From Pseudomonadota bacterium (GTDB taxonomy: Bacteria > Pseudomonadota > Gammaproteobacteria > Burkholderiales > Rhodocyclaceae), in NCBI GenBank assembly GCA_018241665.1, contig JAFEDK010000019.1, positions 261,767 to 325,766 of the forward strand: DNA of 64,000 nucleotides. Direction: 5' to 3'. Position numbers and translations under genes: made by a program. This document shows positions 48,551-64,000 of this stretch, piece by piece (position 1 is the first letter of the stretch; each line of letters opens with the position of its first letter). Below the pieces are notes generated by a model. It had not been told where the DNA came from, did no database searches, and saw nothing but the letters and a program-made list of their open reading frames with translations.

Positions 48551-50005
48551 ATGATCGAATCCAGCCTCAAGGACATCGCCGCGGCCCTCCGCGACAAAAA
48601 GGTTTCCGCCGTCGAACTCGCCACCGAGAGCCTTTCCCGCATCGAAGCCGGCAACGCCCGCATCAACGCCTTCGTCACCATCGACCGGGACGGCGCGCTG
48701 GCCGCCGCCAAAGCCGCCGACGAACGCCTGGCCGCCGGCACCGCCGGCCCGCTGACCGGCATCCCGCTGGCCCACAAGGACGTCTTCTGTACCGAAGGCG
48801 TGCTCACCACCTGCGGCTCGAAGATGCTGTCCAACTTCGTCAGCCCCTACGATGCCCACGTGGTCAGCCTGCTGAAGGCCGCCGGCGCGGTGATGGTCGG
48901 CAAGACCAACATGGACGAGTTCGCGATGGGCTCCTCCAACGAGAACTCCCACTTCGGCCCGACCCGCAACCCGTGGAACACCGACAAGGTGCCCGGCGGC
49001 TCGTCCGGCGGCTCCGCCGCGGCGGTTGCCGCCCGCATGGTGCCGATCGCCACCGGCACCGACACCGGCGGCTCGATCCGCCAGCCGGCGTCCCTGTGCG
49101 GCATCACCGGCATCAAGCCGACCTACGGCCGCGTGTCCCGCTACGGCATGATCGCCTACGCCTCGTCGCTCGATCAGGGCGGCGCCTTCGGCTACAGCGC
49201 CGAAGACTGCGCACTGCTGCTGTCGGCCATGGCCGGCCACGACCCGCGTGACTCCACCAGCCTCGAACAGGGCGCCGAAGACTTCGGCCGCGACCTCGCC
49301 AAGCCCCTCGCCGGCCTGCGCGTCGGCCTGCCGAAGGAGTTCTTCGCCGAAGGCATGTCCGATGACGTGCGTGCCGCCGTCGACGCTGCCATTGCCGAAT
49401 ATCGCAATCTCGGTGCCACCACCGTCGAGGTGAGCCTGCCCAACGCCCGCCTGGCGATCCCCGCCTACTACGTGATCGCCCCGGCCGAGGCCAGCTCCAA
49501 CCTGTCCCGCTTCGACGGCGTACGCTACGGCCACCGCGCCGCCGATTACGGCGACCTCAACGACATGTACTGCAAGAGCCGCGCCGAAGGCTTCGGCGGC
49601 GAGGTCAAGCGGCGCATCCTGGTCGGCACCTACGTGCTGTCCCACGGCTACTACGACGCCTACTACATCAAGGCCCAGAAACTGCGCCGCCTGATCGCCA
49701 ACGACTTCGCCGCCGCCTTCCAGCTGTGCGACGTGATCGCCGGCCCGGTGAGCCCGACGGTCGCCTTCGGCATCGGCGAGAAGAGCGACGACCCGGTCCA
49801 GATGTACCTGTCGGACATATACACCATCGCCGTTAACCTCGCTGGCCTGCCCGGCCTGTCGCACCCGGCCGGTTTCGGCGCCGGTGGTCTGCCGGTCGGC
49901 CTGCAGCTGATCGGCAACTACTTCGGCGAGGCCCGCCTGCTGAACGCCGCCCACCAGTACCAGCAGCACACCGACTGGCACACCCGGGCCCCGGCCGGCG
50001 TCTGA
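48551..50005 (+). CDS. gatA: Asp-tRNA(Asn)/Glu-tRNA(Gln) amidotransferase subunit A
   Basis: The 484-residue glutamine-hydrolysing subunit of the amidotransferase. It has the amidase Ser-Ser-Lys triad: the lysine in [10 protein letters not shown], and the two serines in the signature [17 protein letters not shown] and the [16 protein letters not shown] segment. [16 protein letters not shown] and [20 protein letters not shown] are also conserved. It begins 75 bp after gatC and ends 8 bp before a small lipoprotein gene. Confidence 0.97.
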
Positions 50006-50013
50006 GGCCTCGG

Positions 50014-50532
50014 ATGAGCGCCGTGCCACGCCCCATCACCTCCCGCATCGCCGCCGGCCTGGCCGTGGCGCTGCTGGCCGGCTGTTCGGCGGTTGCACCG
50101 CGGCCGTCGACGGCACCGCAGGCGCCCGGCGAACAGCGCCCGTCCGAAGCCCCGGCGGCCCCGTCCGGCCGCCTCAAGCCGATGCCGCTGCGCACCTTCA
50201 CGGTCGCCACCGAATGCCGCTTCCGTGACGAAACCGGCAATTCAGGCAAGGCCACGGTGGACGTGCTCAACTCCAAGGTGCGGGCACTCAGTGTCGAGCT
50301 GACGATGCCCAAGCGCGGCATGTGCCGCTACGACCTGGCCAACCTCCATCAAACCCAGGCCCTGCCGTCCATCGAACTGGAAGGCCCCCGCGACTGCCGC
50401 GTGCGACTGTGGGAACAGGGCGAACAGATCACCGTCGCCTTCGCCGGCTGTCACACCATGTGTTCCCCGTCCAGCGCCCAGGATTACGTGTGGCCGCTGC
50501 TGATCGACAAGAACACGGGCAAGTGCGACTGA
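50014..50532 (+). CDS. Lipoprotein of unknown function between gatA and gatB
   Basis: A 172-residue lipoprotein: the signal peptide ends in the lipobox LLAGCS, with Cys24 as the lipid-attachment residue. A proline/alanine-rich linker (about 28-55) leads to a beta-rich domain with CRFRDETGNSGKATVDVLNS and MPKRGMCRYDLANLHQ, carrying six cysteines that could form disulphides. The ATG at 50014 has GAGG six bases upstream. It lies inside the gatA-gatB operon although its role in the envelope is unrelated to tRNA amidation. I recall similarly placed lipoprotein genes in related betaproteobacteria, but not their function. Confidence 0.85.
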   Translation: MSAVPRPITSRIAAGLAVALLAGCSAVAPRPSTAPQAPGEQRPSEAPAAPSGRLKPMPLRTFTVATECRFRDETGNSGKATVDVLNSKVRALSVELTMPKRGMCRYDLANLHQTQALPSIELEGPRDCRVRLWEQGEQITVAFAGCHTMCSPSSAQDYVWPLLIDKNTGKCD

Positions 50533-50558
50533 ACGACCAAGAAATCTAGAGAGCAAAC

Positions 50559-52019
50559 ATGAGCAGAACCGACTGGGAAGTCGTCATCGGGCTGGAAATC
50601 CACACCCAGCTCAACACGCAGTCCAAGATCTTCTCCGGCGCCAGCACCGCCTTCGGCGCCGAGCCCAACGCCCAGGCCTGCGCGGTGGACATCGCACTGC
50701 CCGGCGTGCTGCCGGTGCTCAACAAGGGCGCCGTCGAGCGGGCCATCCGCTTCGGCCTCGCCATCGGCGCCACCGTCGCGCCGAAGAGCATCTTCGCCCG
50801 CAAGAACTACTTCTACCCGGATCTCCCGAAGGGCTACCAGATCAGCCAGTACGAGCTGCCGGTGGTCCAGGGCGGCCAGATCACCCTGCAGGTGCCGGAC
50901 GGCAAGGGCGGCGCCTACGAGAAGGTCGTCAACCTGACCCGCGCCCATCTGGAAGAAGACGCCGGCAAGAGCCTGCATGAAGACTTCCACGGCATGACCG
51001 GCATCGACCTCAACCGCGCCGGCACGCCGCTGCTCGAGATCGTCTCCGAGCCCGACATGCGCTCGTCGGCCGAAGCTGTCGCCTACGCCAAGGCCCTGCA
51101 CGCGCTGGTTCGCTGGATCGACATCTGCGACGGCAACATGCAGGAAGGCTCATTCCGCTGCGACGCCAACGTCTCCGTGCGCCCCCGCGGCCAGGCCGAG
51201 TTCGGCACCCGCCGCGAGATCAAGAACCTCAACAGCTTCCGCTTCCTGCAACAGGCCATCGACTATGAGATCCAGTGGCAGATCGATCTCATCGAGGACG
51301 GCGGCAAGGTTCAGCAGGCCACCGTGCTGTTCGACGCGGACACCGGCGAAACCCGCGCCATGCGCAGCAAGGAAGACGCCCACGACTACCGCTACTTCCC
51401 CGACCCCGACCTGCTGCCGCTGGTGATCTCCAGCGAGTGGATCGAGCGCGTGAAGGGCGAGCTGCCCGAGCTGCCGGAAGCCCTGTCGGCCCGCTTCCAG
51501 GGCGAATACGGCCTGTCCGCCTACGACGCCACGACCCTCACCGCAAGCCGCGAAGTAGCCCAGTTCTACCTCGACACCGTTGCCGCGGCCGGTGCCGCCA
51601 ACGCCAAGACCTGCGCCAACTGGGTCATGGGCGAACTCGCCGGCCGCCTCAACAAGGCCGAGCTGGACATCGCCGCCAGCCCCGTCAGCGCCGCCCAGCT
51701 GGCCGGCCTGGTGCAACGCATCGCCGACAACACCATTTCCAACGCCATCGCCAAGAAGGTCTTCGAGGCGCTGTGGAACAAGGAAGGTGAGTCCGCCGAC
51801 GCGATCATCGAGGCCCAGGGCCTCAAGCAGGTCACCGACACGGGCGCCATCGAGGCGATCATCGATGAAGTGCTGGCTGCCAACCAGAAGTCCGTCGAGG
51901 AATTCCGCGCCGGCAAGGAAAAAGCCTTCAACGCGCTGGTCGGCCAGTGCATGAAGGCCTCCAAGGGCAAGGCCAACCCAGCCCAGGTGAACGAGCTGCT
52001 GAAGAAGAAGCTCGGCTGA
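50559..52019 (+). CDS. gatB: Asp-tRNA(Asn)/Glu-tRNA(Gln) amidotransferase subunit B
   Basis: A 486-residue kinase-like subunit that activates the misacylated tRNA carboxylate with ATP and receives ammonia from GatA. The N-terminus [20 protein letters not shown] is conserved, as are [40 protein letters not shown] and [19 protein letters not shown]. The C-terminal YqeY-like tail ends with [16 protein letters not shown]. Last gene of the gat operon; a tandem repeat and REP doublet follow directly. Confidence 0.97.
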
Positions 52020-52040
52020 CCCCAGCCGACCGTGAGTCAA

Positions 52041-52121
52041 GCTCCTGTGGGACTGGCTCCTGTGGGGCTGGCTCCTGTGGGGCTGGCTCCTGTGGGGCTG
52101 GCTCCTGTGGGGCTGGCTCCT
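52041..52121. repeat. 15-bp direct tandem repeat
   Basis: Six copies of GCTCCTGTGGGGCTG (the first with A for G in GGGACTG) start at 52041, 52056, 52071, 52086, 52101 and 52116; the last runs directly into the REP arm at 52122. The same 10-mer GCTCCTGTGG reappears at the right window edge, so the unit seems to be an extension of the REP arm. Confidence 0.9.
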
Positions 52122-52188
52122 GTGGGGGCGAATTCATTCGCCCGCAGTGGTCAATCCACGCGCGGAGGGCGAATGAATTCGCCCCCAC
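52122..52188. repeat. REP-like palindromic doublet
   Basis: Two 22-bp arms (52122-52143 and 52167-52188) in inverted orientation with core GGGCGAATGAATTCGCCC, 23-bp spacer. It lies between the convergent gatB and the gene at 52202 and abuts the 15-bp tandem repeat. Confidence 0.9.
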
Positions 52189-52201
52189 AGCACAACACCC
52201 A

Positions 52202-52981
52202 TTACGGGAAATACGGCAACAAAGCCTTCGCCGCATCGATGCGGTGCGCCGCGCTGGCGGTCGGATCGTTCATCACCGCCAGCAGGAAGCTCTTCGGATC
52301 GCCGAAGTGGCCTTCCACCCCCAGCCTCTCGGTACTCCCCAGCGTCGGCAGCACCGGCACACCGGGCAGCTCTGCCGGCACCAGCGGCCGCGTCGTTGTC
52401 ACCACCGGCGGCGGCGCCAGCTGCATCAAGGCCCGCTCGAAGGCCGCCCGGTCGATGCGCAGGAAGTTGCTCAGCAGATCGGCCTGGCGCTCCGGGTTTG
52501 GCGCAATGTCCAGCCACGGCTCATGGGCCAGCACCCGACCCATGGACGGATCGATGAAGGCCGACCACTTGCCACTGGCCCCGTTGATGGCCGGCACCAG
52601 GCTCACCGGCCCCGGCGGGCAGACCATCAGGCGCGCCTCGGGCACCTCGCCCAGATAGCGCCGGCACAGCCCGGCCAGGAAAGCACGCGCCTTCGGCAGC
52701 GGCACCGGCTCGGCCAGCGAGAACCACAGCAGGAAACCATCCGCCCCCGTCACCGCCATCACCGGCGCCGGCAGTTGCAGGTCGTCCTGGACCTCCTGCC
52801 ACAGGGCCGCCACGTAGTCCCAGGCCTCCGCGCCACTCACCCCCAGCACCATGGCCCGCAGCTGCCCATCCGGCCCCAGGGGCTCGAAGGCCTGCGCCGC
52901 GCCGCTCGCCAGGGACACCTCATCCGGCGACAGGCCGGGCTGGAAAAAAAGCCGCTGCAGTTCTGCAATCAGTTTGCTCAT
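52202..52981 (-). CDS. Conserved-looking hypothetical protein
   Basis: A 259-residue soluble protein without signal peptide. The middle (VMAVTGADGFLLWFSLAEPV and KARAFLAGLCRRYLGEVP, about residues 75-120) faintly recalls the G-x-G-x-H-W/L-F...PVP pattern of archaeo-eukaryotic-type primase folds. The last 35 residues (DPKSFLLAVMNDPTASAAHR, IDAAKALLPY) recall short helical motifs seen in phage terminase small subunits. Both comparisons are weak and from memory; no catalytic residues could be assigned. The gene is single, convergent with gatB and divergent from the GGDEF/EAL gene. Codon use does not differ obviously from its neighbours. Confidence 0.65.
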   Translation of the reverse strand: MSKLIAELQRLFFQPGLSPDEVSLASGAAQAFEPLGPDGQLRAMVLGVSGAEAWDYVAALWQEVQDDLQLPAPVMAVTGADGFLLWFSLAEPVPLPKARAFLAGLCRRYLGEVPEARLMVCPPGPVSLVPAINGASGKWSAFIDPSMGRVLAHEPWLDIAPNPERQADLLSNFLRIDRAAFERALMQLAPPPVVTTTRPLVPAELPGVPVLPTLGSTERLGVEGHFGDPKSFLLAVMNDPTASAAHRIDAAKALLPYFP

Positions 52982-53064
52982 GGATCACCACTAGACGCCC
53001 AAAGCCGTAATTTCGCACTATTTTGAAGTGGAACATTCGGCAAAATCAGGCGTTCCCTGTACAA

Positions 53065-55962
53065 ATGCCAATATTGCCACCGTGCAGCTCCGGCCCACCT
53101 TCCGAACAGCCGACCTCCGCCGTGATTGACTTCTTCCAACTCATGCCGCACGGCTACTGCCTGTCCTGGCGCCCGGAGCTGATCGCCTCCTATGTGCTGG
53201 GCAACGGGCTCATCGCTTTTTCATATTTCTCGATCCCCTTCTTCATCTTCCGTTTCGTCCGCCAGCGGCCGGACATCGAGTTCAAAAAACTGCACTGGCT
53301 GTTTGCCATCTTCATTTTTGCATGCGGCATCACCCATGTCCTGCACGTCGTCGAGCTGTGGTGGCCGGTCTATTACATCGAGAGCCTGGCCGTCATCATC
53401 ACCGCGCTGGTGTCGCTGCTCACTGCCATCACGGTGTGGAAGCTGCTGCCGGATTTTCTCGAATTCCCGAGCATCGCCCAGCTGAAGGCCCTGAACGAAA
53501 AGCTGCGGGTCGCCGAAGTCGAGCGGCGCACCAGCGAAGAGCGCCTGCGTGGCATGGCGGACAGCATTCCCGACAGCTACCTGTACGAATACACCGTCGA
53601 CACCGACGGCACGCCCCGCTTCCGGCATATAGGGCCGGGCATCGAACGTCTCAACGGCCTCAGCTCGACCGAGGTGATCGCCGACGCGACGCGGCTGTTC
53701 AAGCAGATCGACCCCGAGCAGCTGCCCGAATACCGGATGACCGAAGCCCAGAGCCGCAGCACGCTGACAGACTTCTCGATGGACCTCCACATGCGCCTGC
53801 CAAATGGGGAATGGCGCTGGGTCCATGCCCACTCCCGGCCCCGCACGGATGCTGATGGCACCGTCGTATGGGACGGGCTGGCCACCGACGTCACCAACCG
53901 CCACCTGTTCCAGAGCGAGATCAACCGCCTCGCCCAGGCCATCGAACAGAACCCGACCGCCGTGCAGATCGTCAATGCCCGCGGCGAGCTCGAATACGTC
54001 AACTCGGCCTACACACGGACCACCGGCTACCAGTTCGGCGAACTCTACGACCAGCCGCGGGAAGCCCTGTTCAGCAGCGAGGTGTCCGCCGCGGAATTCG
54101 TACAGATCGAGGAACAGGTCCGCTCCGGCCGCCCCTGGCGCGGCGTGCAGGCCAACCGCCACAAGGACGGCGAGCTCCACTGGGAGGAAATAACCGCCTC
54201 GGCGGTGTTCGACAGCTTCGGGCGGATGACCCACTACCTCTACACCCGCCAGGACATCACCGAAAGGGAGAAGCTGCTGCTCGAGGTGGACCTGGCGAGC
54301 CGGGTGCTGTCGGTCAGCAACGAGGCGGTAATGGTCTGCGACGCCCACAACCACATCATCTCGGTCAATCCGGCCTTCAGCCGCATCACCGGCTACACGG
54401 AAGCCGAGGTGCTCGGCCACAACCCGGGCATGCTGGCCTCCGGACGCCACGACAGCAGGTTCTACGCCGAGCTGTGGCAGGCGATCAACAAGCACGGTGA
54501 ATGGAGCGGCGAGATCTGGAACCGCCGCAAGGACGGCGCCGTATATCCGGAATGGCTGTCGATCGCCACCTTCACCAGCAAGTCCGGCGAGATCCTGAAC
54601 TACGTCGCCATCTTCAGCGACATCACCTCCCGCAAGGCCGTCGAGGAGCAGGTCCGGCGCCTCGCCCACTACGACCCGCTGACCAACCTGCCCAACCGTA
54701 CCCTGCTGCAGGACCGGGTCGGCAGCGCGCTGGCCAGCGCCCAGCGGCACCATGGGCGGCTGGCGCTGATGTACCTGGACCTGGACCGCTTCAAGAACGT
54801 CAATGACTCCCTCGGCCACCTGGCCGGCGATGCGCTGCTGGTCGAGATGGCGACACGCCTGAAAGCCCTGCTGCGCGAAGAGGACACGGTCTCGCGCATC
54901 GGCGGCGATGAGTTCGTCATCGCGCTGCCAGGCGCCGACGCCCACGGCGCGGCAAGCGTCGCCAACAAGGTCCTCCACGCGGTGGCCGAGAGCGTCAGCT
55001 ACGACGGCCATGACCTCAGCGTCGGCGTCAGCATCGGCATCGCCCTCTACCCGGAAAACGGCCACAGCTACGAAAGCCTGACCCAGGCCGCCGACGCCGC
55101 CCTCTACCGGGCCAAGCAGACCGGCCGCAACAACTACCAGTTCTTCACCACCCAGCTGCACGCCAGAGCCCAGAACGTGCTGCGCATCGAAAGCGCCCTG
55201 CGGCGGGCAGTGGAGCGCAACGAGCTGTTCCTGTACTACCAGCCCCAGTTCGACATCGGCGGCAGCACCATCGTCGGCGCCGAGGCCTTGCTGCGCTGGC
55301 ACAACCCTGAGCTCGGCTGGGTGTCGCCCGGCGAGTTCATCCCGGTGGCCGAGGAATGCGGGCTGATCCTCGAGATCGGCAGCTTCGTCCTGAACCAGGC
55401 CGTCCAGCAGCAGGCGCGCTGGCTACAGGCGGGCATCCCGGTGGTTCCGCTGGCGGTCAACCTGTCGCTGGCCCAGTTCCGCCAGCCCACCCTGCCGCTG
55501 GAGATCGCCACCCTGCTCGACGAATACGGCCTCCCCGCGCGGCTGCTCGAACTGGAGCTGACCGAGAGCATGGCGATGGACGACCCGGCCTTCGTCGTCC
55601 AGACCGTGGACAAGCTGTCGGAGCTCGGCGTGACCCTCTCCATCGACGACTTCGGCACCGGTTACTCCTCCCTGTCCTACCTCAAGCGCTTCCGCGTGCA
55701 CAAGCTCAAGATCGACCAGTCCTTCGTGCGCGACCTGCCCCACTCGTCGGACAGCGAGGCGATCATCAACGCCATCATCGGCATGGCCCACAGCCTCAAG
55801 TGCAAGGTCATCGCCGAGGGCGTCGAGACCAGCGAACAGCTGCACTGCCTGCACCAGAACGGCTGCGACGAGGCACAGGGCTACCACTTCAGCCGCCCGG
55901 TGCCGGCCGACGACTACGTCGCCCAGCTCAACGGACGCCGCCTGCGGGAAGAGATCCAGTGA
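53065..55962 (+). CDS. Ethylene-receptor-like membrane sensor with PAS, GGDEF and EAL domains
   Basis: A c-di-GMP enzyme of about 965 residues. The N-terminal three-helix membrane domain (about 30-125) resembles the ETR1 copper/ethylene-binding domain: NGLIAFSYFSIPFFIFRFV, then ACGITHVLHVVE with the copper-ligand-type Cys87 and His91. The Asp of ETR1 (Asp25) is Asn here. Three PAS domains follow (about 165-530), then GGDEF (RIGGDEFVIAL, residues 613-617) and EAL (GAEALLRWHN, Glu740; ELTES; DDFGTGYSSLSYLKRF; IAEGVET). Both output motifs look intact, so it may make and degrade c-di-GMP. The start is uncertain: TTG 53023, ATG 53065 or GTG 53122. Its stop overlaps the GTG of the RACo-type gene. 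Confidence 0.9.
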   Translation: MPILPPCSSGPPSEQPTSAVIDFFQLMPHGYCLSWRPELIASYVLGNGLIAFSYFSIPFFIFRFVRQRPDIEFKKLHWLFAIFIFACGITHVLHVVELWWPVYYIESLAVIITALVSLLTAITVWKLLPDFLEFPSIAQLKALNEKLRVAEVERRTSEERLRGMADSIPDSYLYEYTVDTDGTPRFRHIGPGIERLNGLSSTEVIADATRLFKQIDPEQLPEYRMTEAQSRSTLTDFSMDLHMRLPNGEWRWVHAHSRPRTDADGTVVWDGLATDVTNRHLFQSEINRLAQAIEQNPTAVQIVNARGELEYVNSAYTRTTGYQFGELYDQPREALFSSEVSAAEFVQIEEQVRSGRPWRGVQANRHKDGELHWEEITASAVFDSFGRMTHYLYTRQDITEREKLLLEVDLASRVLSVSNEAVMVCDAHNHIISVNPAFSRITGYTEAEVLGHNPGMLASGRHDSRFYAELWQAINKHGEWSGEIWNRRKDGAVYPEWLSIATFTSKSGEILNYVAIFSDITSRKAVEEQVRRLAHYDPLTNLPNRTLLQDRVGSALASAQRHHGRLALMYLDLDRFKNVNDSLGHLAGDALLVEMATRLKALLREEDTVSRIGGDEFVIALPGADAHGAASVANKVLHAVAESVSYDGHDLSVGVSIGIALYPENGHSYESLTQAADAALYRAKQTGRNNYQFFTTQLHARAQNVLRIESALRRAVERNELFLYYQPQFDIGGSTIVGAEALLRWHNPELGWVSPGEFIPVAEECGLILEIGSFVLNQAVQQQARWLQAGIPVVPLAVNLSLAQFRQPTLPLEIATLLDEYGLPARLLELELTESMAMDDPAFVVQTVDKLSELGVTLSIDDFGTGYSSLSYLKRFRVHKLKIDQSFVRDLPHSSDSEAIINAIIGMAHSLKCKVIAEGVETSEQLHCLHQNGCDEAQGYHFSRPVPADDYVAQLNGRRLREEIQ

Positions 55963-57566
55963 GCAACGCCCTCCCATCCACCGCCACCCTGCTCGGCGCC
56001 GACGGCGAACGCCGGGTGAGCGTCCAGCCCGGCCACAGCGTGCAGGCCGCCCTGGTCGATGCCGGCCTGGCGCCTTCCGGCAGCTGCAACGGCCAGTCCT
56101 TGTGCGGCCAGTGCCGGGTGCAACTGGTGGACGGCGACGCCGGCGCACCGACGCCCGGTGAACACCGCCTACTGCAGCCTGCCGAGCTGGAGGGTGGCCA
56201 GCGGCTGGCCTGCCAGCTGCGGCCCCGCAGCGACATCGTGCTCGCCCGCCCACTCGGCGCGGCCCACCAGGCCTGGCGGGCGCTGCGTGAAGACGAGTAT
56301 TTCCCGCAGCCCGCCCCGCCCCAGCCGCGCCGCCCAGCCCGCCCATGCGGGCTGGCCATCGACCTCGGCACCACCCACATCCGCCTCAGCCTGTGGGATC
56401 TGCCCGGCGCGCGCCGGCTGGCCGGCCGGGCCGGCCTCAACCCGCAGATCCCGGCCGGCGCCGACGTACTGAGCCGCCTCGCCGAAGCCACCCGTAGCCC
56501 GGCCAGCGCCGCACGCCTGCAAGCCTGGCTGACCCGGGCCATCGCCACCGAACTGGCCACCCTGACGGCCAGCCTGCAGCTCGCCACAACCGACATCGGC
56601 GAAGTCCGCATCGTCGGCAACACCGCCATGCTGAGTCTGCTGGCCGGCCGCAACCAGGCCCTGCTCCTCGACCCGGACAACTGGACCCGGACCATCGACG
56701 TATCCCCCGCCGACCCGGCCGCGCTGTGCGCCGCCTGGGGGCTGGCCGCCGACTGCCGGCTCGACTTCGTGGCGCCCCTCGGCGGCTTCGTCGGTTCCGA
56801 CCTGCTCGCCGGCATCCTCGCCACCGGCCTGTGCGAAGGCCCAGCCAACGCCCTGCTGGTGGATTTCGGCACCAATTCGGAACTCGCCCTGTGGGACGGC
56901 GAGCGCCTGCACATCACCTCCACCTCCGGCGGACCGGCCTTCGAAGGCAGCGGCATCTCCTGCGGCATGCCCGGCGAAGCGGGCGCCATCTACCGCATCG
57001 AAGCCGGCGCCAGGCCGGGTGACTGGCGTTGCCGGGTCCTCGGCGACGGCCCCGCCCGGGGCATCTGCGGCTCCGGCCTGGTGGATGCGCTGGCCTTGCT
57101 GCGGCAGCAAGACCTGCTCAGCCCGCTCGGCCGCTTGCGCCTGCCCCCGGGCCAGTCGGGCCAGCCACTGGATGCCGGGTCGGCCGGGCGGCAGCTGAGT
57201 CCGGCCGACATCGACGTGTTCCAGCGCGCCAAGGCGGCCATCGGCGCCGGCATCAGCTGGCTGTGCGACGAGGCCGGCATCCACCCCAGCCAGATCCAGC
57301 GCATCCACGCCTGCGGCGCCTTCGGCCGCCTGCTCGACATCGCCCATGCACAGGCCATCGGCCTCTTGCCCACCATCCCCGCCGAGCGGATCAGCGCCGC
57401 CGCCAACTCAGCCCTGGCGGGCTGCGAGGCCCTGCTGTTCGCCGCCCCGGGCACCGACCCGCTGGCCGCCATCCGCCACCGGGCCAGGCTGTTCAACCTG
57501 AGCCAGGCAGAACACTTCGAGATGCTGTTCATCGAGAACCTCTACATCCAGCCCCTCCCAGCCTAG
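55959..57566 (+). CDS. Reductive activator of corrinoid proteins (RACo-type, 2Fe-2S plus ASKHA)
   Basis: A 535-residue ATP-dependent reductase that returns oxidised Co(II) cobalamin in corrinoid proteins to active Co(I). The N-terminal 90 residues are a plant-type 2Fe-2S ferredoxin with Cys43, Cys49, Cys52 and Cys85 (GSCNGQSLCGQCRVQLVDG, LACQL). The rest is the RACo/DUF4445 actin-like ATPase: AIDLGTTHIRLSLW, VRIVGNTAMLSLLAGR, LLVDFGTNSELALW, GGPAFEGSGISCGMPG and HACGAFGRLLDI. The GTG at 55959 is decided by the 4-base overlap (GTGA) with the preceding gene. It is immediately followed by its expected substrate, a corrinoid protein. Confidence 0.93.
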   Translation: MSNALPSTATLLGADGERRVSVQPGHSVQAALVDAGLAPSGSCNGQSLCGQCRVQLVDGDAGAPTPGEHRLLQPAELEGGQRLACQLRPRSDIVLARPLGAAHQAWRALREDEYFPQPAPPQPRRPARPCGLAIDLGTTHIRLSLWDLPGARRLAGRAGLNPQIPAGADVLSRLAEATRSPASAARLQAWLTRAIATELATLTASLQLATTDIGEVRIVGNTAMLSLLAGRNQALLLDPDNWTRTIDVSPADPAALCAAWGLAADCRLDFVAPLGGFVGSDLLAGILATGLCEGPANALLVDFGTNSELALWDGERLHITSTSGGPAFEGSGISCGMPGEAGAIYRIEAGARPGDWRCRVLGDGPARGICGSGLVDALALLRQQDLLSPLGRLRLPPGQSGQPLDAGSAGRQLSPADIDVFQRAKAAIGAGISWLCDEAGIHPSQIQRIHACGAFGRLLDIAHAQAIGLLPTIPAERISAAANSALAGCEALLFAAPGTDPLAAIRHRARLFNLSQAEHFEMLFIENLYIQPLPA

Positions 57567-57600
57567 AATGGATCCGCTTACCCCACCGGGAGCAGCCCGC

Positions 57601-58266
57601 ATGCTCGACGACATCCTCAGGGCCTATACCGAGGCCATCTACAACGCTGACCGGACGACAGCGCTGGCGGTGGTGGATGCCGCCCGCGCCAGCGGCGTCT
57701 CGCCGGAGGACATCGTCTTCAAGGTGGTGATCCCCGGGCTGGACATGATGATCAAGGCCATCAACGACGGCTTCGACACCAACCTGGCCCAGCACTTCAT
57801 GACCGCCCACATCGCTGCGGACGTCACCGACCGGATGCTGGCCCAGTTCGCCAGGCCGCCCGAGATGGTCGGCCACGTCGTCATCGGCACCGCCGCCGGC
57901 GACCTGCACACCCTCGGCAAGCGCATCGTCATGGGCTGCCTGAAGGCCCAGATGATCGACGCCATCGACCTCGGCGTGAACGTGCCGGCCGAACGCTTCG
58001 TGGACGAGGCCGTCGCCCGCGGCGCCTCGGTGATCGCCGTGTCGGCGATGATGGTGCATACCGCCCGCGGCGAGAACGGCGCCATCAAGGTGCGCCAGCT
58101 GCTGCGCGAGCGCCAGCTGGAAGGGCGCATCCGCCTGGTGGTCGGCGGCGCCCCCTTCCGCTACGACCCCCGGCTGTACCAGATCGTCGGCGCCGACGCC
58201 TGGGCCGACAACGGCGTCAGCGCCGCCCGCGTCATTCTCGATTTCATCAAGGAAGCACGCTCATGA
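57601..58266 (+). CDS. Corrinoid (cobalamin-binding) methyl-carrier protein
   Basis: A 221-residue MtaC/MtbC/CmuA-type protein: an N-terminal four-helix cap (about 1-85) followed by a B12-binding Rossmann domain. The cobalt-ligand motif is DLHTLG, with Asp101, His103 and Gly106; His103 would coordinate cobalt. IDLGVNVPAERFVDEAV, IAVSAMMVHT and VVGGAPF line the nucleotide loop. I place the start at the ATG at 57601, 9 nt after GGGAG; an in-frame ATG at 57568 would add 11 residues. It ends in a 4-base ATGA overlap with the next gene. The methyl donor and acceptor are not evident. Confidence 0.93.
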   Translation: MLDDILRAYTEAIYNADRTTALAVVDAARASGVSPEDIVFKVVIPGLDMMIKAINDGFDTNLAQHFMTAHIAADVTDRMLAQFARPPEMVGHVVIGTAAGDLHTLGKRIVMGCLKAQMIDAIDLGVNVPAERFVDEAVARGASVIAVSAMMVHTARGENGAIKVRQLLRERQLEGRIRLVVGGAPFRYDPRLYQIVGADAWADNGVSAARVILDFIKEARS

Positions 58267-59309
58267 TCACAGGCATGGACCGGCTCGCCGCCGCCGCCCG
58301 CGGCGAGATCCTCGACCGCATCCCGGTGTTCTGCAACCTGGTGGACCAGGGCGCCCGTGAACTCGGCATGCCCCTGGAAACCTATTTCTCCCGCGGCGAA
58401 TACGTCGCCGAAGCCCAGCTGCGGATGCTCGGCAAATACGGCCACGACAACGTCTGGAGCCTGTTCTACGTGGGCCGCGAGGCCGAGCTGCTGGGCTGCC
58501 GGAAGATCAAGTACGCCAATGACGGCCCGCCCAATGTGGAGGACTTCGTCATCAAGTCCTACGCCGACATCGAACGCCTCGAGGTACCCGACGACATTTC
58601 CACGCATCCGGCCTTCGCCGAGACCGCCCACTGCCTGGAAATCCTCAAACGCGAAGTGGGCGGCAAGGCGCCGATCTGTGCCTACCTGACCGCCTCCATG
58701 TCGCTGCCGGCGATCCTGATGAGCATGGAGAAATGGATCGAGCTGCTGATGCTCGGCCCCACCGAGATGCGCGACCTGCTGCTGGAAAAGTGTTCGGCCT
58801 TCTTCCAGAAGGAAATCGAGGCCTACCGCAAGGCCGGTGCCGACGTGCTGGTCTATGCCGACCCCTATGGCTCCACCGACATCGTGCCGATGTCCATGTT
58901 CCGCGAACTGTCCCTGCCGTGGATGAAGCGCGACCTGGCCGCCGGCGGGCTCGACGGCGTCGTCTATTACGTCGGCGGCGCCCGCGTGAACGGGGTGCTC
59001 GACCAGGTCATCGAGGAGGTCGGTTTCGGCACCTACTACCCCGGCCCGATGGACGACATCGGCGAGTCCATGCGCCTCGTCGCCGACCGCGCCCTGTGCG
59101 GCGCCGTCATCAACGACATCCGCCTGATCGACTGGACGCCGGAAGAAGTCCGGGCCGAGGTGAAGCGCCTGGTGCAACGCGGCCTGAAGATCAGCAAGAA
59201 ACTGTTCTTCGGCACCATCCTGATGCCCTTCGGCATTCCCGACGCCAACATCCGGGCGATGATCGACGCCGCCTGCGAATTCGGCCGCCCCGACAGGCTG
59301 GAGGCCTGA
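58263..59309 (+). CDS. UroD/MtaA-family protein of the corrinoid operon, zinc ligands apparently missing
   Basis: A 348-residue TIM-barrel protein of the uroporphyrinogen decarboxylase/cobalamin methyltransferase family. It starts MITGMDRLAAAARGEILDRI and has YLTASMSLPAILMSMEKWIE, GADVLVYADPYGSTDIVP and ILMPFGIPDANIRAMIDAAC. In MtaA-type enzymes a zinc site is built from an H-x-C motif (often LHxCG) and a cysteine near the end (LAPGCG). Here those places read YYVGGA and MPFGIP, without His or Cys. It may therefore move methyl groups by a different chemistry or be non-catalytic. It overlaps both neighbours (ATGA; TGATG). Confidence 0.88.
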   Translation: MITGMDRLAAAARGEILDRIPVFCNLVDQGARELGMPLETYFSRGEYVAEAQLRMLGKYGHDNVWSLFYVGREAELLGCRKIKYANDGPPNVEDFVIKSYADIERLEVPDDISTHPAFAETAHCLEILKREVGGKAPICAYLTASMSLPAILMSMEKWIELLMLGPTEMRDLLLEKCSAFFQKEIEAYRKAGADVLVYADPYGSTDIVPMSMFRELSLPWMKRDLAAGGLDGVVYYVGGARVNGVLDQVIEEVGFGTYYPGPMDDIGESMRLVADRALCGAVINDIRLIDWTPEEVRAEVKRLVQRGLKISKKLFFGTILMPFGIPDANIRAMIDAACEFGRPDRLEA

Positions 59310-59932
59310 TGGCAGCAGCCACCCGCTGCAGCCTGCTGGGCTGCGGGATCCTCGCCGCGGAAGTCCATCACCTGATCGAGCGGAACGGCTGGCCGGTGGA
59401 CACCGACTTCCTGCCCTCCTCCCTGCACATCGACCTGGAAAAGCTCGAAGCCGCGCTGACCGACACCCTGGCCCGCCACCCGGAGCCGGCCAAGCTGGTG
59501 TTCTACGGCTGCTGCCATCCACGCATGGACGCCCTGCTGGATGCCGCGCAGACCTTCCGCACCGAAGGACAGAACTGCGTCGCCATGCTGCTGGGCCACC
59601 AGCGCTTCATGGACGAGCTCTCCGCCGGCGCCTTCTTCCTGCTCGAGGACTGGGCGCTGCACTGGGACGACGCCATGCGCGCCACCTTCGGCGATCATCC
59701 CGAGGCGACCCGCGAGATCTTCCAGCTCTCCAACCACTACATCCTGGCCCTGCGCACCCCCTGCTCCGGCGACTTCAGCGCCCAGGCCCGCCATGCAGCG
59801 GACTCGGTGGGCCTCCCGCTGCGCTGGCTCGACGTCGGACTGGAGCAGCTGGAGCAGGTGCTGGCCGACGCCCTGGCGCGCTGCCAGCAGCCCCCCGGCC
59901 CGGCAAAAAGTCCTGTGCGACGCACAATTTGA
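59309..59932 (+). CDS. DUF1638-like protein of the corrinoid operon
   Basis: A 207-residue protein. CSLLGCGILAAEVHHLIERN opens it, DFLPSSLHIDLEKLEAALTD follows, and KLVFYGCCHPRMDALLDAAQ holds a vicinal cysteine pair. This order matches my memory of DUF1638, a family repeatedly found beside corrinoid methyltransferases and MtaA-like genes. The biochemical role is unknown; the conserved cysteines suggest a metal site. The ATG at 59309 overlaps the stop codon of the UroD-like gene by one base (TGATG), so it belongs to the operon. Confidence 0.8.
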   Translation: MAAATRCSLLGCGILAAEVHHLIERNGWPVDTDFLPSSLHIDLEKLEAALTDTLARHPEPAKLVFYGCCHPRMDALLDAAQTFRTEGQNCVAMLLGHQRFMDELSAGAFFLLEDWALHWDDAMRATFGDHPEATREIFQLSNHYILALRTPCSGDFSAQARHAADSVGLPLRWLDVGLEQLEQVLADALARCQQPPGPAKSPVRRTI

Positions 59933-59990
59933 CCGTCCGGCGGCGGGAATCGCGCAATAATCGGGCGTCCCCCCGCAGTGCCTTCCCCCC

Positions 59991-62900
59991 ATGAACCGCA
60001 TCGACATCTTCCCGTGGGATGACAATTTCTGCACGGGCCTGCCCACCGTGGATGAACAGCATCGCAAGCTGGTGGACCTGCTCAACCAGCTCGCCAGCCG
60101 CTTCGCGCGGCACAGCGACGAACTGAGCCTGGAACAGCTGTTCGACGAGCTGGCCGCCTACACGGTCTATCACTTCGAGCACGAAGAACAGATCTGGGGC
60201 GCCTTCATGGGCGGCACCCCCCAGCAGATCGCCCACAGCAACAGCCACGCCGACTTCGTCCGCTACGTCCAGGAAGCCCGGCGCAAGCTGCCCGGCCGCC
60301 CGCAGCAAGAGGTCGCCGAGGAAATCCTGGAGTTCCTGACCCGCTGGCTGGCCTCCCACATCCTCGAGAGCGACCGCTCCATGGCCTACACAGTGCTGGC
60401 CTTGCAGGACGGCCTGTCCCTCGAAGACGCCCAGGCCCGGGCCGCGAAACGGATGAGCGGCGCGACACGGACCCTGATCGACCTGATCCTGTCGATCTAT
60501 TCCACCCTGTCCAGCAACACCCTGCGGCTGATGCGCGAGCTGACCGAGCGCCGTGCCACCGAAATCGCCCTGACCGAGGCCAAGGATGCCCTCGAGAAAT
60601 CCGGCACCCTGCTGCAGACCATCATCGACACCGTGCCGATGCGCGTCTTCTGGAAGGACCGCGAGCTGCGCTACCTCGGCTGCAACCCGGTGTTCGCCCA
60701 GGACGCCGGCAAGGCGAACCCCGCCGAACTGCTCGGCCGGGACGACTACGCCATGGCCTGGGCGCCGGAGGCCGACATCTACCGCGCCGACGACCAGGCC
60801 GTAATCAGTTCAGGCAAGGCCAAGCTCGGCTACGAGGAACCCCAGACCACCCCGGACGGCCGCCAGATCTACCTGCGCTCTTCCAAGGTGCCGCTGCATG
60901 GCCATGACGGAGAGATCATCGGCGTGCTCGGCGTGTACGAGGACATCACCGACCTCCGCAACGCGGTCGACGGTCTGCGCGAGAGCGAACAGAAGTTCCA
61001 CTCCCTGTACACGGCGATGACCGAAGGCGTGGCCATCCACCAGCTGGTGCTGGATGCCGCCGGCCAGCCGCAGGACTACCTCATCCTCGACGTGAATCCG
61101 GGCTTCGAGACCATCCTCGGCCTGTCCCAGCAGGACGTGATCGGCCGCCTGGCCAGCCAGGTCTATGGCCAGGTGCCCTTCCTCGACACCTACGCCCGGG
61201 TCGCCGGCGGCGGCGGACCGGTTCGCTTCGAGTCCCGCTTCGCACCGCTCGACAAGGTGTTCACCATCTCGGTGTTCTCGCCCGCCCCCGGTCGCTTCGC
61301 TACCGTGTTCCAGGACATCACCGCACGCACCGAGGCCGAGGCGGCCCTGCGCGAGAGCGAGGAACGCCTGCGCCTGGCCCTCGGCGCCTCCAACCAGGGC
61401 TGGTTCGACCTAGACCTGCCGAGCGGACGGGTCAACGTCAGCGACAACTACGCGAGCATCATCGGTTATCCCACCGACGGCTTCGAGAGCAGCCTCACCA
61501 ACTGGCTGGCCAGCATCCACCCGGAGGACGCCCCGGCACTGCAGGAAAGGTTTGCCGCCTGCCTGCGCAGCGGTGGCCCGGAGAGCATGGAATACCGCCG
61601 CCGCACCCGCGACGGCGCCTGGGTGTGGATCGAGTCGGTCGGCAAGATCGTCCACTGGGACACAGACGGCACGCCGCTGCGCATGATCGGCATCCATACC
61701 GACATCTCCGCGCGCAAGCGGGCCAGCGACGAACAGCAACGCCTGAACCGGGCCCTGCGACTGCTCAGCGAATGCAACCTGGCGCTGGTCCGCGACGAGG
61801 CCGAGCTGCCGCTGCTCGAGCACATCTGCCGACTTGTGGTCGAATCCGGCGGCTACGTGATGGCCTGGGTCGGCTACGCGGAACACGACTCCGGCAAGAC
61901 CGTCACGCCGGTCGCCCGCTCGGGCTACGAAGAGGGTTACCTGGACAAGGTCCGGATCAGCTGGGACCGCGACCTGGACATCGGCCGCGGCCCCACCGGC
62001 ACCGCCATCTGGTCCGGCCAGACCCAGGTCAACCAGGACGTGCAGACCAACCCTGCGCTGCAGCCATGGCGCGGCGCCGCCACCCAGCGCGGCTACCACT
62101 CGTCGATCGCTCTGCCGCTGCGCACCGACGACCAGGCCTTCGGCGCGCTGACCATCTACGCCGCCGAAGCCCACGCCTTCGGCGACGATGAAATCGCGCT
62201 GCTCGAAGAACTGGTCGCCAACCTCAGCTTCGGCATCCGCGCCCAACGCACCCGCGCCCAGCGGGAAGCCGCGGTCGCCGCCAACCGGGCCAAGAGTTCC
62301 TTCATTGCCAACATGTCCCACGAGATCCGCACACCGCTCAACGCCATCAACGGCATGGTGTACCTGCTGCGGCGGGACGGCGTGGACGCCAGGCAGGCGG
62401 AGCGCCTGGGCAAGATCGAGGACGCCAGCCAGCACCTGCTGGAAATCATCAACGCGGTGCTCGACCTGTCGAAGATCGAAGCCGACAAACTGGAGCTCGC
62501 CGACCAGCCGATCGACCTGCACACCCTGCTGCACAGCGCCGCCGCGATGGTGCAGGAACGCGCCCACGCCAAGCAGCTGCAGCTGAGCGTCTCCCTGTCC
62601 CCAGACCCGGCACCGGCACTGCGCGGCGACGCGACCCGGCTGCAGCAGGCCTTGCTCAACTACCTGGCCAACGCGGTCAAGTTCACCGATGCGGGCAGCA
62701 TCCACGTTTCCTGCCGCGTCGTCGACGACAGCCCAGATGCGGCACTGGTGCGCTTCGAAGTGCGGGACAGCGGCATCGGCATCGCCGCCGACGTGCTGGC
62801 CCGCCTGTTCTCAGCCTTCGAGCAGGCCGACAATTCCACCACCCGCCAGTACGGCGGCACCGGCCTGGGCCTGGCCATCACCCGCAAGCTGGCCGGCCTG

Positions 62901-63425
62901 ATGGGCGGCGAAGCCGGCGCCGACAGCGTGCCCGGCCAGGGCAGCACCTTCTGGTTCACCGCCCGCCTCAAGCATGACCGGCAGGCCGTGGCGGCCATCG
63001 ACACGCCCACCGACGAAGACGCCGCCGAGCAACTGCGGCAGCACTATGGACAGCGCCGGGTGCTGCTGGTGGAGGACGAGCCCACCAACCAGGAGGTCGC
63101 CCGCCTGTTCCTGGAAGAAGCGGACCTGGTGGTGGACGTCGCCAACGACGGCCTCGAAGCCGTCGAGCGCGCCAGCGCCAGCCCCTACGACTTGATCCTG
63201 ATGGACATGCAGATGCCACGCCTGGACGGACTGGATGCCACCCGCCAGATCCGCCGGCTGGCGCAGCACCGCCTGACCCCCATCGTCGCGATGACCGCCA
63301 ACGCCTTCGCCGAGGACCGCGCGCGCTGCCTGGAGGCCGGCATGAACGACTTCATCCCGAAGCCGGTCGCCCCCGCCCTGCTGTTCGCCACCCTGCTGCG
63401 CAGCCTGCGCGCCGCCCGCAGCTGA
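59991..63425 (+). CDS. Hemerythrin-PAS-GAF hybrid sensor kinase
   Basis: A 1144-residue soluble hybrid kinase. The N-terminal bacteriohemerythrin domain (1-140) has His24, His61, Glu65, His82, His86, His123 and Asp128, a complete di-iron site. Three PAS-type domains follow (about 195-310, 320-440 and 445-560), then a GAF domain (about 580-740). The phosphorylated histidine is His777 ([10 protein letters not shown]), with ATPase motifs ANAVKFTDAG and [17 protein letters not shown]-terminal receiver follows with Asp1072 (LILMDMQMPRLDG). It begins 58 bp after the DUF1638-like gene and probably belongs to the same transcript. It is likely an oxygen or redox sensor; no separate HPt or output regulator is in view. 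Confidence 0.93.
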   Translation: MNRIDIFPWDDNFCTGLPTVDEQHRKLVDLLNQLASRFARHSDELSLEQLFDELAAYTVYHFEHEEQIWGAFMGGTPQQIAHSNSHADFVRYVQEARRKLPGRPQQEVAEEILEFLTRWLASHILESDRSMAYTVLALQDGLSLEDAQARAAKRMSGATRTLIDLILSIYSTLSSNTLRLMRELTERRATEIALTEAKDALEKSGTLLQTIIDTVPMRVFWKDRELRYLGCNPVFAQDAGKANPAELLGRDDYAMAWAPEADIYRADDQAVISSGKAKLGYEEPQTTPDGRQIYLRSSKVPLHGHDGEIIGVLGVYEDITDLRNAVDGLRESEQKFHSLYTAMTEGVAIHQLVLDAAGQPQDYLILDVNPGFETILGLSQQDVIGRLASQVYGQVPFLDTYARVAGGGGPVRFESRFAPLDKVFTISVFSPAPGRFATVFQDITARTEAEAALRESEERLRLALGASNQGWFDLDLPSGRVNVSDNYASIIGYPTDGFESSLTNWLASIHPEDAPALQERFAACLRSGGPESMEYRRRTRDGAWVWIESVGKIVHWDTDGTPLRMIGIHTDISARKRASDEQQRLNRALRLLSECNLALVRDEAELPLLEHICRLVVESGGYVMAWVGYAEHDSGKTVTPVARSGYEEGYLDKVRISWDRDLDIGRGPTGTAIWSGQTQVNQDVQTNPALQPWRGAATQRGYHSSIALPLRTDDQAFGALTIYAAEAHAFGDDEIALLEELVANLSFGIRAQRTRAQREAAVAANRAKSSFIANMSHEIRTPLNAINGMVYLLRRDGVDARQAERLGKIEDASQHLLEIINAVLDLSKIEADKLELADQPIDLHTLLHSAAAMVQERAHAKQLQLSVSLSPDPAPALRGDATRLQQALLNYLANAVKFTDAGSIHVSCRVVDDSPDAALVRFEVRDSGIGIAADVLARLFSAFEQADNSTTRQYGGTGLGLAITRKLAGLMGGEAGADSVPGQGSTFWFTARLKHDRQAVAAIDTPTDEDAAEQLRQHYGQRRVLLVEDEPTNQEVARLFLEEADLVVDVANDGLEAVERASASPYDLILMDMQMPRLDGLDATRQIRRLAQHRLTPIVAMTANAFAEDRARCLEAGMNDFIPKPVAPALLFATLLRSLRAARS

Positions 63426-63446
63426 CCGGGGCCGGGCGCAACCGCG

Positions 63447-63938
63447 TCAGCCCCGCCCCTCCAGCACCTTCTTCAGCAGGCGCATGCGCTTGCCCATGTC
63501 CGGCCCGGCCAGCTCGCCGAGGCTCTGGCTGTCTGTGGCCACCGGCAGGCCCTCGGCGGCCAGCACCGCCCTGACCTGCGCCGGACTCTTGCCGGCAACC
63601 AGGGCCAGGGTCGTCAGCGGCGTGTCCGACAGGGCGCGGACCGAGGCCATGAAGGGCGGCTCCCGCCTGGCACCGACGCTGACGAAACTGAGCACCAGCA
63701 ACACCGCGAAGCCCCCCATCACGGCGGCACCGACCCGCGACGTGTAATGACGCTTGAAGGCCGCCAGGTTGGCCACCACGTGCAGCACCACGCCCCCCAG
63801 CAACAACCAGCTCAACCACTCATGGGCCAGCTTGTTGAGGCCCGAATCCAGGTGGAAGAAGATCAGCACGCCGGTAACGGCGGACAACAGGAAAGCCCCG
63901 CCGGCAATCGGCGTGACCCAGTTTCGCGAAATAGCCAT
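63447..63938 (-). CDS. DUF4405-like membrane protein
   Basis: A 163-residue protein with three membrane segments (about 9-28, 38-57 and 68-86) and a soluble C-terminus. FHLDSGLNKLAHEWLSWLLL and GVVLHVVANLAAF resemble the DUF4405 (cytochrome b561-related) pattern with paired histidines that could hold heme. The C-terminal part (TPLTTLALVAGKSPAQVRAV, ATDSQSLGELA) looks like a small helical domain also found in such proteins. The start ATG at 63938 has GGAAG seven bases upstream. It converges with the hybrid kinase; the partner genes lie beyond the window. Confidence 0.75.
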   Translation of the reverse strand: MAISRNWVTPIAGGAFLLSAVTGVLIFFHLDSGLNKLAHEWLSWLLLGGVVLHVVANLAAFKRHYTSRVGAAVMGGFAVLLVLSFVSVGARREPPFMASVRALSDTPLTTLALVAGKSPAQVRAVLAAEGLPVATDSQSLGELAGPDMGKRMRLLKKVLEGRG

Positions 63939-63979
63939 CTTGTAACTTCCGGATCAATGAAAACCATCGGAGGCGAGCT

Positions 63980-64000
63980 GCTCCTGTGGGCTGCTCCTGT
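63980..64000. repeat. Start of another REP-associated repeat (cut by window edge)
   Basis: GCTCCTGTGGG followed by GCTCCTGT repeats the unit of the 52041 tandem array with a 13-bp period. It suggests that a further REP element follows past base 64000. Confidence 0.6.

What the first reader, a model, noticed from the sequence alone, without database searches (positions are those of the whole stretch)
53065..59932. Corrinoid methyl-transfer operon translationally coupled to an ethylene-receptor-like c-di-GMP protein
Five genes are joined by GTGA, ATGA and TGATG overlaps or a short 34-bp gap: an ETR1-like GGDEF/EAL protein, a RACo-type activator, a corrinoid protein, a UroD/MtaA-like protein and a DUF1638-like protein. 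Activator, carrier and methyltransferase-like protein make up most of a methyl-transfer system of the kind best known from anaerobes (methanol, methylamine, chloromethane, O-demethylation), but no MtaB-, MttB- or VdmB-like substrate enzyme is present in the window. Coupling of such a module to a c-di-GMP gene by start/stop overlap is something I do not recall being described. A hemerythrin kinase follows, so oxygen and redox control is plausible. Function is inference.
Basis: partly seen in the sequence, partly recalled or inferred. Interest (0 to 1): 0.82.

Follow-up and report, generated by a model that had tools for sequence, protein, structure and literature searches.

The report
Corrinoid sensor module feeding cell signalling
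Genes that look like a vitamin-B12-type methyl-transfer machine are, in many bacterial groups, found directly beside signalling genes, which suggests that bacteria use this chemistry to sense something rather than to grow on it.

Summary
In detail: five co-directional, overlapping or nearly touching genes encode an ETR1_N/PAS/GGDEF/EAL protein, a RACo activase, a corrinoid protein, a URO-D-fold protein and DUF1638; a hemerythrin hybrid kinase follows. The reading as an incomplete methyl-catabolic operon is probably wrong. I opened 41 loci with this corrinoid/URO-D block (type I), from at least seven phyla by record title. In 39 of 40 assessable loci the next same-strand gene is a sensor/signalling protein; in 37 it begins with one dedicated GAF domain (14 of 15 genomes with that domain, among 793 sampled, have the block beside it). 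In a sister group (type II) DUF1638 is fused to a histidine kinase in 9 of 11 assessable loci. The URO-D protein lacks the MtaA zinc ligands; the cobalt-binding His is invariant. No MttB or MtaB match is in the genome. Best reading: a corrinoid-based sensory module with swappable outputs (kinases, c-di-GMP enzymes). In the window's lineage a PAS-PAS protein seems to replace the GAF partner, here carried by the ETR1-GGDEF-EAL gene; ETR1_N itself was seen in 1 of 41 loci. Signal and mechanism are inferred. Nine literature searches showed no description.

The parts
53065..55962 (+). ETR1_N / PAS x3 / GGDEF / EAL protein (965 aa); residues 157-427 are 47% identical to the PAS-PAS part of the kinase that follows the block in the closest relative L011
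   Evidence: GGDEF and EAL motifs and the C87/H91 pair in the ETR1_N domain
55959..57566 (+). RACo-type corrinoid activase (Fer2, Raco_middle, RACo_C_ter); GTGA overlap with the gene before
   Evidence: only RACo match of the genome
57601..58266 (+). corrinoid protein with DLHTLG (cobalt-ligand His at residue 103)
   Evidence: His kept in 38 of 38 type I rows
58263..59309 (+). URO-D-fold, MtaA-like protein without the MtaA zinc ligands; ATGA overlap
59309..59932 (+). DUF1638 protein, alpha/beta model of high confidence, three conserved Cys (C12, C69, C90); TGATG joint
59991..63425 (+). hemerythrin / PAS / GAF / HisKA / HATPase / REC hybrid kinase, 58 bp after DUF1638; possible second output, without the dedicated GAF domain of other loci

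Best explanation
The four genes RACo, corrinoid protein, URO-D protein and DUF1638 form the input half of a sensory system, and the signalling genes around them are its output. Inferred working: RACo, with ATP and a 2Fe-2S cluster, keeps the bound cobamide in the reactive Co(I) state; the URO-D-fold protein brings a methyl-type ligand to the cobalt, or reads its state; the methyl/redox state of the cobamide is passed, with the help of DUF1638, to a dedicated partner domain, and from there to a histidine kinase/phosphorelay or directly to c-di-GMP enzymes. In most lineages the partner is one specific GAF domain; in type II it is DUF1638 itself fused to the kinase; in the window's small lineage it is probably a PAS-PAS region, which in L011 drives a kinase followed by a REC-HD protein and in the window sits in the ETR1-GGDEF-EAL protein. 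Shown: the conserved block, its partner domain, the fusions, the lost zinc ligands, the kept cobalt ligand. Inferred: direction of information flow, the ligand, and every chemical step.
Against: No experiment; direction of flow is not shown. Kinases beside methyltransferase operons are known as plain regulators (mec cassette, PMC9768040, passages seen). Eight of 41 type I loci show no RACo and four no DUF1638 within 9 kb (some are contig ends), so these are not indispensable in cis. The window itself lacks the GAF domain. Three of 26 GAF copies in 25 named genomes lie away from corrinoid/URO-D genes, and one genome (G873) has the GAF protein with no block near it. In five type I loci the GAF protein showed no kinase or GGDEF domain by my profiles (L012, L078, L079, L096, L097); in L020 it is split over frames and in L024 cut by the contig end. 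L122 has a type-II-like URO-D gene with no corrinoid or DUF1638 gene in 15.5 kb; L123 has DUF1638-PAS without a kinase in that frame; L128 has corrinoid, URO-D and RACo genes and no kinase before the contig end. Two of seven DUF1638-positive genomes of the window's order (L036, L039) have corrinoid clusters without kinases. The GAF domain and the middle of type II proteins are not detectably related.
Confidence: 0.6

Rival explanations
1. The block is an enzyme system (a corrinoid demethylase of unknown substrate) and the neighbouring kinases and GGDEF proteins are its local regulators, as in the dichloromethane mec cassette or the methyltransferase-associated sensor kinases of Methanosarcina.
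For: RACo implies repeated turnover; a kinase and a receiver protein accompany corrinoid methyltransferases in the mec cassette, where a transcriptional role is proposed (PMC9768040, passages); a reference title names a methyltransferase-associated sensor kinase in Methanosarcina (PMC11619418). L036 shows that DUF1638/RACo/corrinoid/URO-D genes also occur in a set with Pterin_bind and MTHFR genes.
Against: DUF1638 fused to kinases; one dedicated GAF domain kept with the block whatever the output; no DNA-binding domain in the five response-regulator proteins scanned (a small sample); no second methyltransferase in the block; zinc ligands lost; MTTB in only 5 of 37 other genomes with the block.
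Confidence: 0.22
2. The corrinoid protein is a light sensor or a pure redox/oxygen sensor, and methyl transfer plays no part.
For: A solved B12-binding chain named GGDEF domain-containing protein is among the matches of the corrinoid protein (8j2y); a hemerythrin kinase follows in the window; the URO-D protein lacks the MtaA zinc site.
Against: An ATP-driven activase that makes Co(I) is not needed by a photoreceptor (general knowledge); the methyltransferase-type cobalt-ligand His is kept in 38 of 38 type I rows and corrinoid and URO-D genes are together in 41 of 41 type I loci.
Confidence: 0.12
3. RACo and DUF1638 serve general cobalamin reactivation, for example for methionine synthase, and the operon is a housekeeping set.
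For: In Phaeobacter a RamA-like and a DUF1638 protein are needed for methionine synthesis (PMC5764234, passages).
Against: The window's MetH has its own activation domain (PF02965, 404 bits); the block keeps its own corrinoid and URO-D proteins and its own signalling neighbours.
Confidence: 0.04

Closest known systems
Corrinoid methyltransferase systems (MtaABC, MttBC, CmuAB, RamA/RACo-activated)
   Same: RACo-type activase, corrinoid protein with DxHxxG, URO-D/MtaA-superfamily protein
   Different: No MtaB or MTTB match in the genome; MtaA zinc ligands replaced; next gene is a signalling protein; NCBIfam cut-offs not reached
mec cassette of dichloromethane degraders
   Same: Histidine kinase, corrinoid protein and several URO-D proteins side by side (PMC9768040, passages)
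   Different: mec has a second methyltransferase (MecF), a transporter and a proposed transcriptional two-component pair; the block here has no second methyltransferase, but has RACo, DUF1638 and c-di-GMP or kinase neighbours
Methyltransferase-associated sensor kinases of Methanosarcina (RdmS, MsmS)
   Same: Sensor kinases beside methyltransferase genes; GAF domains (reference titles only; MsmS recalled)
   Different: Described as thiol- or heme-based sensors (titles); no DUF1638 or corrinoid input is known to me (recalled)
RamA-like plus DUF1638 B12 reactivation in Phaeobacter and Ruegeria
   Same: RACo-like and DUF1638 proteins act in one pathway (PMC5764234, passages; PMC12478193, passages)
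   Different: There the client is methionine synthase/MtgC; here a dedicated corrinoid/URO-D pair beside signalling genes
B12-based sensors (CarH, recalled; B12-binding GGDEF-annotated chain 8j2y)
   Same: Cobalamin-type domain coupled to a regulatory output
   Different: Single-protein receptors (recalled); no activase, URO-D partner or DUF1638

Membership tests
MtaA/CmuA methyltransferase | URO-D fold family PF01208 | tested here: met
   149.6 bits against cut-off 23.9
MtaA/CmuA methyltransferase | TIGR01463 subfamily cut-off | tested here: not met
   83 bits against 235.4
MtaA/CmuA methyltransferase | zinc ligands His-x-Cys ... Cys of MtaA (ligand identity recalled) | tested here: not met
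   His to Tyr in 38 of 38 type I rows; middle Cys kept in 32, Val in 3 (the window's lineage), Gly in 2, Ala in 1; third Cys absent; one URO-D of L039 keeps the H-x-C ... C pattern
Corrinoid methyl-carrier protein (MtaC/MtbC type) | B12-binding and B12-binding_2 domains, DxHxxG cobalt ligand | tested here: met
Corrinoid methyl-carrier protein (MtaC/MtbC type) | TIGR02370 and equivalog cut-offs | tested here: not met
   93.8 bits against 215.3
RACo corrinoid activase | 2Fe-2S, middle and ASKHA C-terminal domains | tested here: met
   Cys 43, 49, 52, 85
RACo corrinoid activase | ATP-dependent reduction of the corrinoid protein | not testable with these tools
   needs biochemistry
DUF1638 (PF07796) | curated cut-off | tested here: met
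   97.7 bits against 27
Complete corrinoid methyltransferase system | substrate:corrinoid methyltransferase (MTTB or MtaB) in the genome | tested here: not met
   no PF06253 or PF12176 match; other substrate enzymes (OdmB/VdmB type) were not tested
mec-like regulated cassette | second methyltransferase (MtrH/Pterin_bind type) in the block | tested here: not met
   none among the five genes and the kinase
Ethylene receptor (ETR1-like) | ETR1_N domain with the Cys/His copper-binding pair (pair recalled) | tested here: met
   107.9 bits against 27; C87 and H91
Ethylene receptor (ETR1-like) | copper and ethylene binding | not testable with these tools
   needs biochemistry
GAF domain (partner protein in other loci) | GAF fold | tested here: met
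B12 photoreceptor | light response of the corrinoid protein | not testable with these tools
   needs spectroscopy

The most novel reading that the evidence does not exclude
Bacteria in at least seven phyla, aerobic methane oxidisers among them, detect a methylated or one-carbon compound by performing corrinoid methyl chemistry as the detection step: a zinc-free URO-D protein loads a cobamide kept at Co(I) by RACo, and the methyl/redox state of the cobalt is read by DUF1638 and a dedicated GAF, PAS or kinase partner and turned into phosphorelay or c-di-GMP output. This would be a sensor class in which an organometallic reaction intermediate is the signal.
Probability: 0.35. Interest if true: 0.92.

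Novelty: categorically new. Interest (0 to 1): 0.82.

Why it matters
If true, corrinoid methyl-transfer proteins are not only catabolic enzymes but receptors, which would explain why the window's genome and others keep a RACo-type activase and a corrinoid protein with no MttB- or MtaB-like substrate enzyme. It gives DUF1638, a domain of unknown function with a genetic link to B12 reactivation, a testable role as a state reader, and it links cobalamin chemistry directly to c-di-GMP and two-component signalling. It would also correct annotations that would call such genes methyltransferases or uroporphyrinogen decarboxylases.

Tried and rejected
Complete methyltransferase set elsewhere in the genome: no MTTB and no MtaB match; the other two B12-binding_2 proteins are MetH with its own activation domain and a MerR-B12 (CarH-like) regulator.

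The ETR1/GGDEF/EAL adjacency as the conserved feature: rejected. ETR1_N was found in 1 of 41 type I loci, GGDEF/EAL proteins within 9 kb in 9 of 41.

Recurrent non-signalling neighbours that might name a substrate: clustering of flanking genes gave only two families shared by three or more loci, one linked through hemerythrin-containing proteins, one PAS/GAF sensor-like; 2 of their 7 members lie within two genes of a block (run before L089-L132 were fetched).

GAF domain equals the middle region of type II proteins: not supported (hhalign probability 0.5).

Riboswitch: no Rfam match at gathering score in window 50000-64000. Promoter/terminator scan: no clear excess over shuffles.

Literature (searches; open-access PMC only): no paper describing this module was seen in the listings; passages were seen in PMC5764234, PMC12478193, PMC9768040 and PMC11619418. 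Subscription papers and preprints were not searched.

Rows left aside: L028 ends 144 bp after URO-D (not counted downstream); type II L083 and L088 are cut by contig ends; L130-L132 have URO-D without a corrinoid gene and were not counted (one search confirms no corrinoid match there, nor in L122, which I do count as a type II exception). Two further weaker places (in G308 and G444) and 17 of the 32 URO-D-positive genomes (all with E of 4e-19 or weaker) were not opened. L119-L121 are not in the tree; they are called type I by closest match and by their GAF partner. The tree also holds one very long row (L039) and is rooted for drawing only.

Full report
What is there. The window holds five co-directional genes with overlapping or nearly touching ends: an ETR1_[18 protein letters not shown] protein (53065-55962), a RACo-type activase (55959-57566), a corrinoid protein (57601-58266), a URO-D-fold, MtaA-like protein (58263-59309) and a DUF1638 protein (59309-59932), followed 58 bp later by a hemerythrin/PAS/GAF hybrid kinase (59991-63425). 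GGDEF and EAL motifs, the four N-terminal Cys of the activase and the DLHTLG cobalt-ligand motif of the corrinoid protein are present.

What surrounds it in other genomes. A scan of named genomes with the URO-D protein gave 25 loci, whose record titles name Methylococcaceae, Methylomonas, Methylobacter, Methylophaga, Rhodocyclaceae, Sulfuritalea, Terasakiella, Rhodospirillaceae, a gammaproteobacterium, Chloroflexi, Hydrogenedentes, Verrucomicrobia, Holophagaceae, Bacteroidota, Geobacter and the UASB270 bacterium (many are metagenome bins). With loci from samples of the window's order (300 genomes), its phylum (398 genomes) and the Geobacter phylum (395 genomes) I opened 41 loci of this kind (type I), the window included. 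Within 9 kb of URO-D, all 41 have the corrinoid protein, 37 DUF1638 and 33 RACo.

The partner domain is nearly private to the block. In 398 genomes of the window's phylum it occurs (E<=1e-10) in 10, all 10 among the 11 genomes with a strong type I URO-D match, on the same contig just downstream; the eleventh is the window. In 395 genomes of the Geobacter phylum it occurs in 5: four with the block beside it, one (G873) with no block near it. In the 25 named genomes it was found 26 times in 23; three of these copies have no corrinoid or URO-D gene in the stretch fetched (L089-L091). One of them (L090) follows a RACo gene near a contig start and carries GGDEF and EAL, with a hemerythrin gene after it; the block of the same genome (L020) shows no RACo gene of its own.

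Fusions. In a sister clade of URO-D proteins (type II; the tree separates 38 type I rows at 97/94 from 9 type II rows at 100/99) no RACo gene was seen beside the block, and DUF1638 is fused to a histidine kinase in L040, L041, L082, L084, L085, L086, L087, L098 and L124, that is in 9 of 11 assessable loci. The two exceptions are L123, where DUF1638 is fused to a PAS domain and no kinase was seen in that frame, and L122, whose type-II-like URO-D gene (51-55% identity to type II) has no corrinoid or DUF1638 gene in 15.5 kb; L083 and L088 are cut by contig ends. Type I and type II DUF1638 are homologous (E 8.6e-14). In the Geobacter phylum further forms appear: URO-D fused to RACo, followed by a HAMP-PAS kinase and a receiver (L125) or overlapping a GGDEF gene (L126); corrinoid/URO-D followed by a GAF kinase (L127) or by DUF1638 and a PAS hybrid kinase (L129); one locus (L128) has corrinoid, URO-D and RACo genes and no kinase before the contig end. 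By contrast, of the seven DUF1638-positive genomes in the order sample, two have corrinoid clusters without kinases: L036, with corrinoid, URO-D, Pterin_bind, RACo, MTHFR and DUF1638 genes, which looks like a set with a folate methyl sink, and L039.

The window's lineage. Window, L011 and L037 form a 100/100 clade inside type I, and all three lack the GAF partner. In L011, the closest relative (78% URO-D identity), the downstream protein is PAS-PAS-kinase-receiver, and its PAS-PAS part is 47% identical to residues 157-427 of the window's ETR1-GGDEF-EAL protein (E 1e-82); a receiver-HD-domain protein, a likely c-di-GMP phosphodiesterase, follows. So the partner seems to have been exchanged, and in the window the PAS-PAS partner is carried by the GGDEF/EAL gene; this is an inference from three genomes. 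GGDEF/EAL proteins lie within 9 kb in 9 of 41 type I loci; in L017 the GGDEF/EAL frame also touches the RACo frame from upstream. ETR1_N was seen only in the window.

Active sites. The cobalt-ligand His is kept in 38 of 38 type I, 10 of 10 type II and 2 of 2 other corrinoid rows. In the URO-D protein the first zinc-ligand His of MtaA is Tyr in 38 of 38 type I rows, the middle Cys is kept in 32 (Val in 3, the window's lineage; Gly in 2; Ala in 1), and the third Cys is absent; type II keeps the first His and has a His near the third position; one URO-D of L039 shows the usual pattern (that these residues bind zinc in MtaA is recalled). Three Cys of DUF1638 are kept in 34 of 34 type I rows; two of them are in 9 of 9 type II and 2 of 2 other rows, and the first is in every row that reaches that position. 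The DUF1638 model is confident (pLDDT 91.9) with only generic alpha/beta matches.

What else the genome offers. No MTTB and no MtaB match, one RACo, a MetH with its own activation domain and a MerR-B12 protein. Of 37 other genomes with the block, 5 have MTTB: those of L012-L016, none of them proteobacterial by title. So the block does not depend on these known substrate enzymes, and RACo is not needed for MetH in the window's genome.

Reading. The simplest account is that the corrinoid block is the input of a sensory system and the variable kinases and c-di-GMP proteins its outputs: the input is constant, the outputs change, one partner domain is dedicated to it, and DUF1638 is fused to kinases. 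What is sensed is not shown. Because RACo-type proteins make Co(I) and the cobalt-ligand His is kept, I favour the methyl/redox state of the cobamide as the signal, with a methylated compound as the stimulus (about one in three); pure redox or light sensing is possible. The chief rival is a demethylase with its own regulators, for which the mec cassette and Methanosarcina give precedents. Function remains inference.

Novelty. Nine searches of open-access papers showed no description of such a module; DUF1638 occurs in three papers and DUF4445 in one. Price and co-workers found DUF1638 and a RamA-like protein needed for methionine synthesis in Phaeobacter and made no specific proposal for DUF1638 (PMC5764234, passages). 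All parts are known families; the assembly as a sensor appears new.

Noticed in passing
window 53065-53500: ETR1_N domain with the C87/H91 pair joined to PAS/GGDEF/EAL: an ethylene-receptor-like c-di-GMP protein; not seen beside any other copy of the block.
   Followed up: partly
L125:7241-10126 and L126:1831-4488: URO-D and RACo fused in one protein, next to a corrinoid gene and a HAMP-PAS kinase (L125) or overlapping a GGDEF gene with a Tll0287-like domain (L126).
   Followed up: partly
L090:245-5985: RACo gene followed by a PAS/GAF/GGDEF/EAL protein with the partner GAF domain and a hemerythrin protein, no corrinoid or URO-D gene in the 9 kb fetched; the block of the same genome (L020) shows no RACo gene.
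   Followed up: partly
L138:8338-10851: Partner GAF domain in a signalling protein of a genome (G873) with no corrinoid/URO-D block nearby: the only such genome among the 15 positives of 793 sampled.
   Followed up: partly
L122:7709-8779: Type-II-like URO-D gene without a corrinoid or DUF1638 gene in 15.5 kb; a GGDEF protein lies about 1.3 kb downstream on the same strand.
   Followed up: partly
L036:3572-10271: Cluster of corrinoid protein, URO-D, Pterin_bind, RACo, MTHFR and DUF1638 in a genome of the window's order: looks like a corrinoid-to-folate demethylation set.
   Followed up: partly
L042:9773-10759: MerR-B12 regulator (CarH-like) in the window's genome.
   Followed up: no
window about 52032-52110: Short tandem repeat just after the gatB-like gene (frames read GAGSC or PVGLA repeats; seen in the ORF list).
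   Followed up: no
L078:5830-6870: NMT1/THI5-like periplasmic-type binding protein between the GAF protein and a hybrid kinase of a type I locus; L079 has a gene of similar length at the same place, which was not scanned. It could be a clue to the ligand.
   Followed up: no
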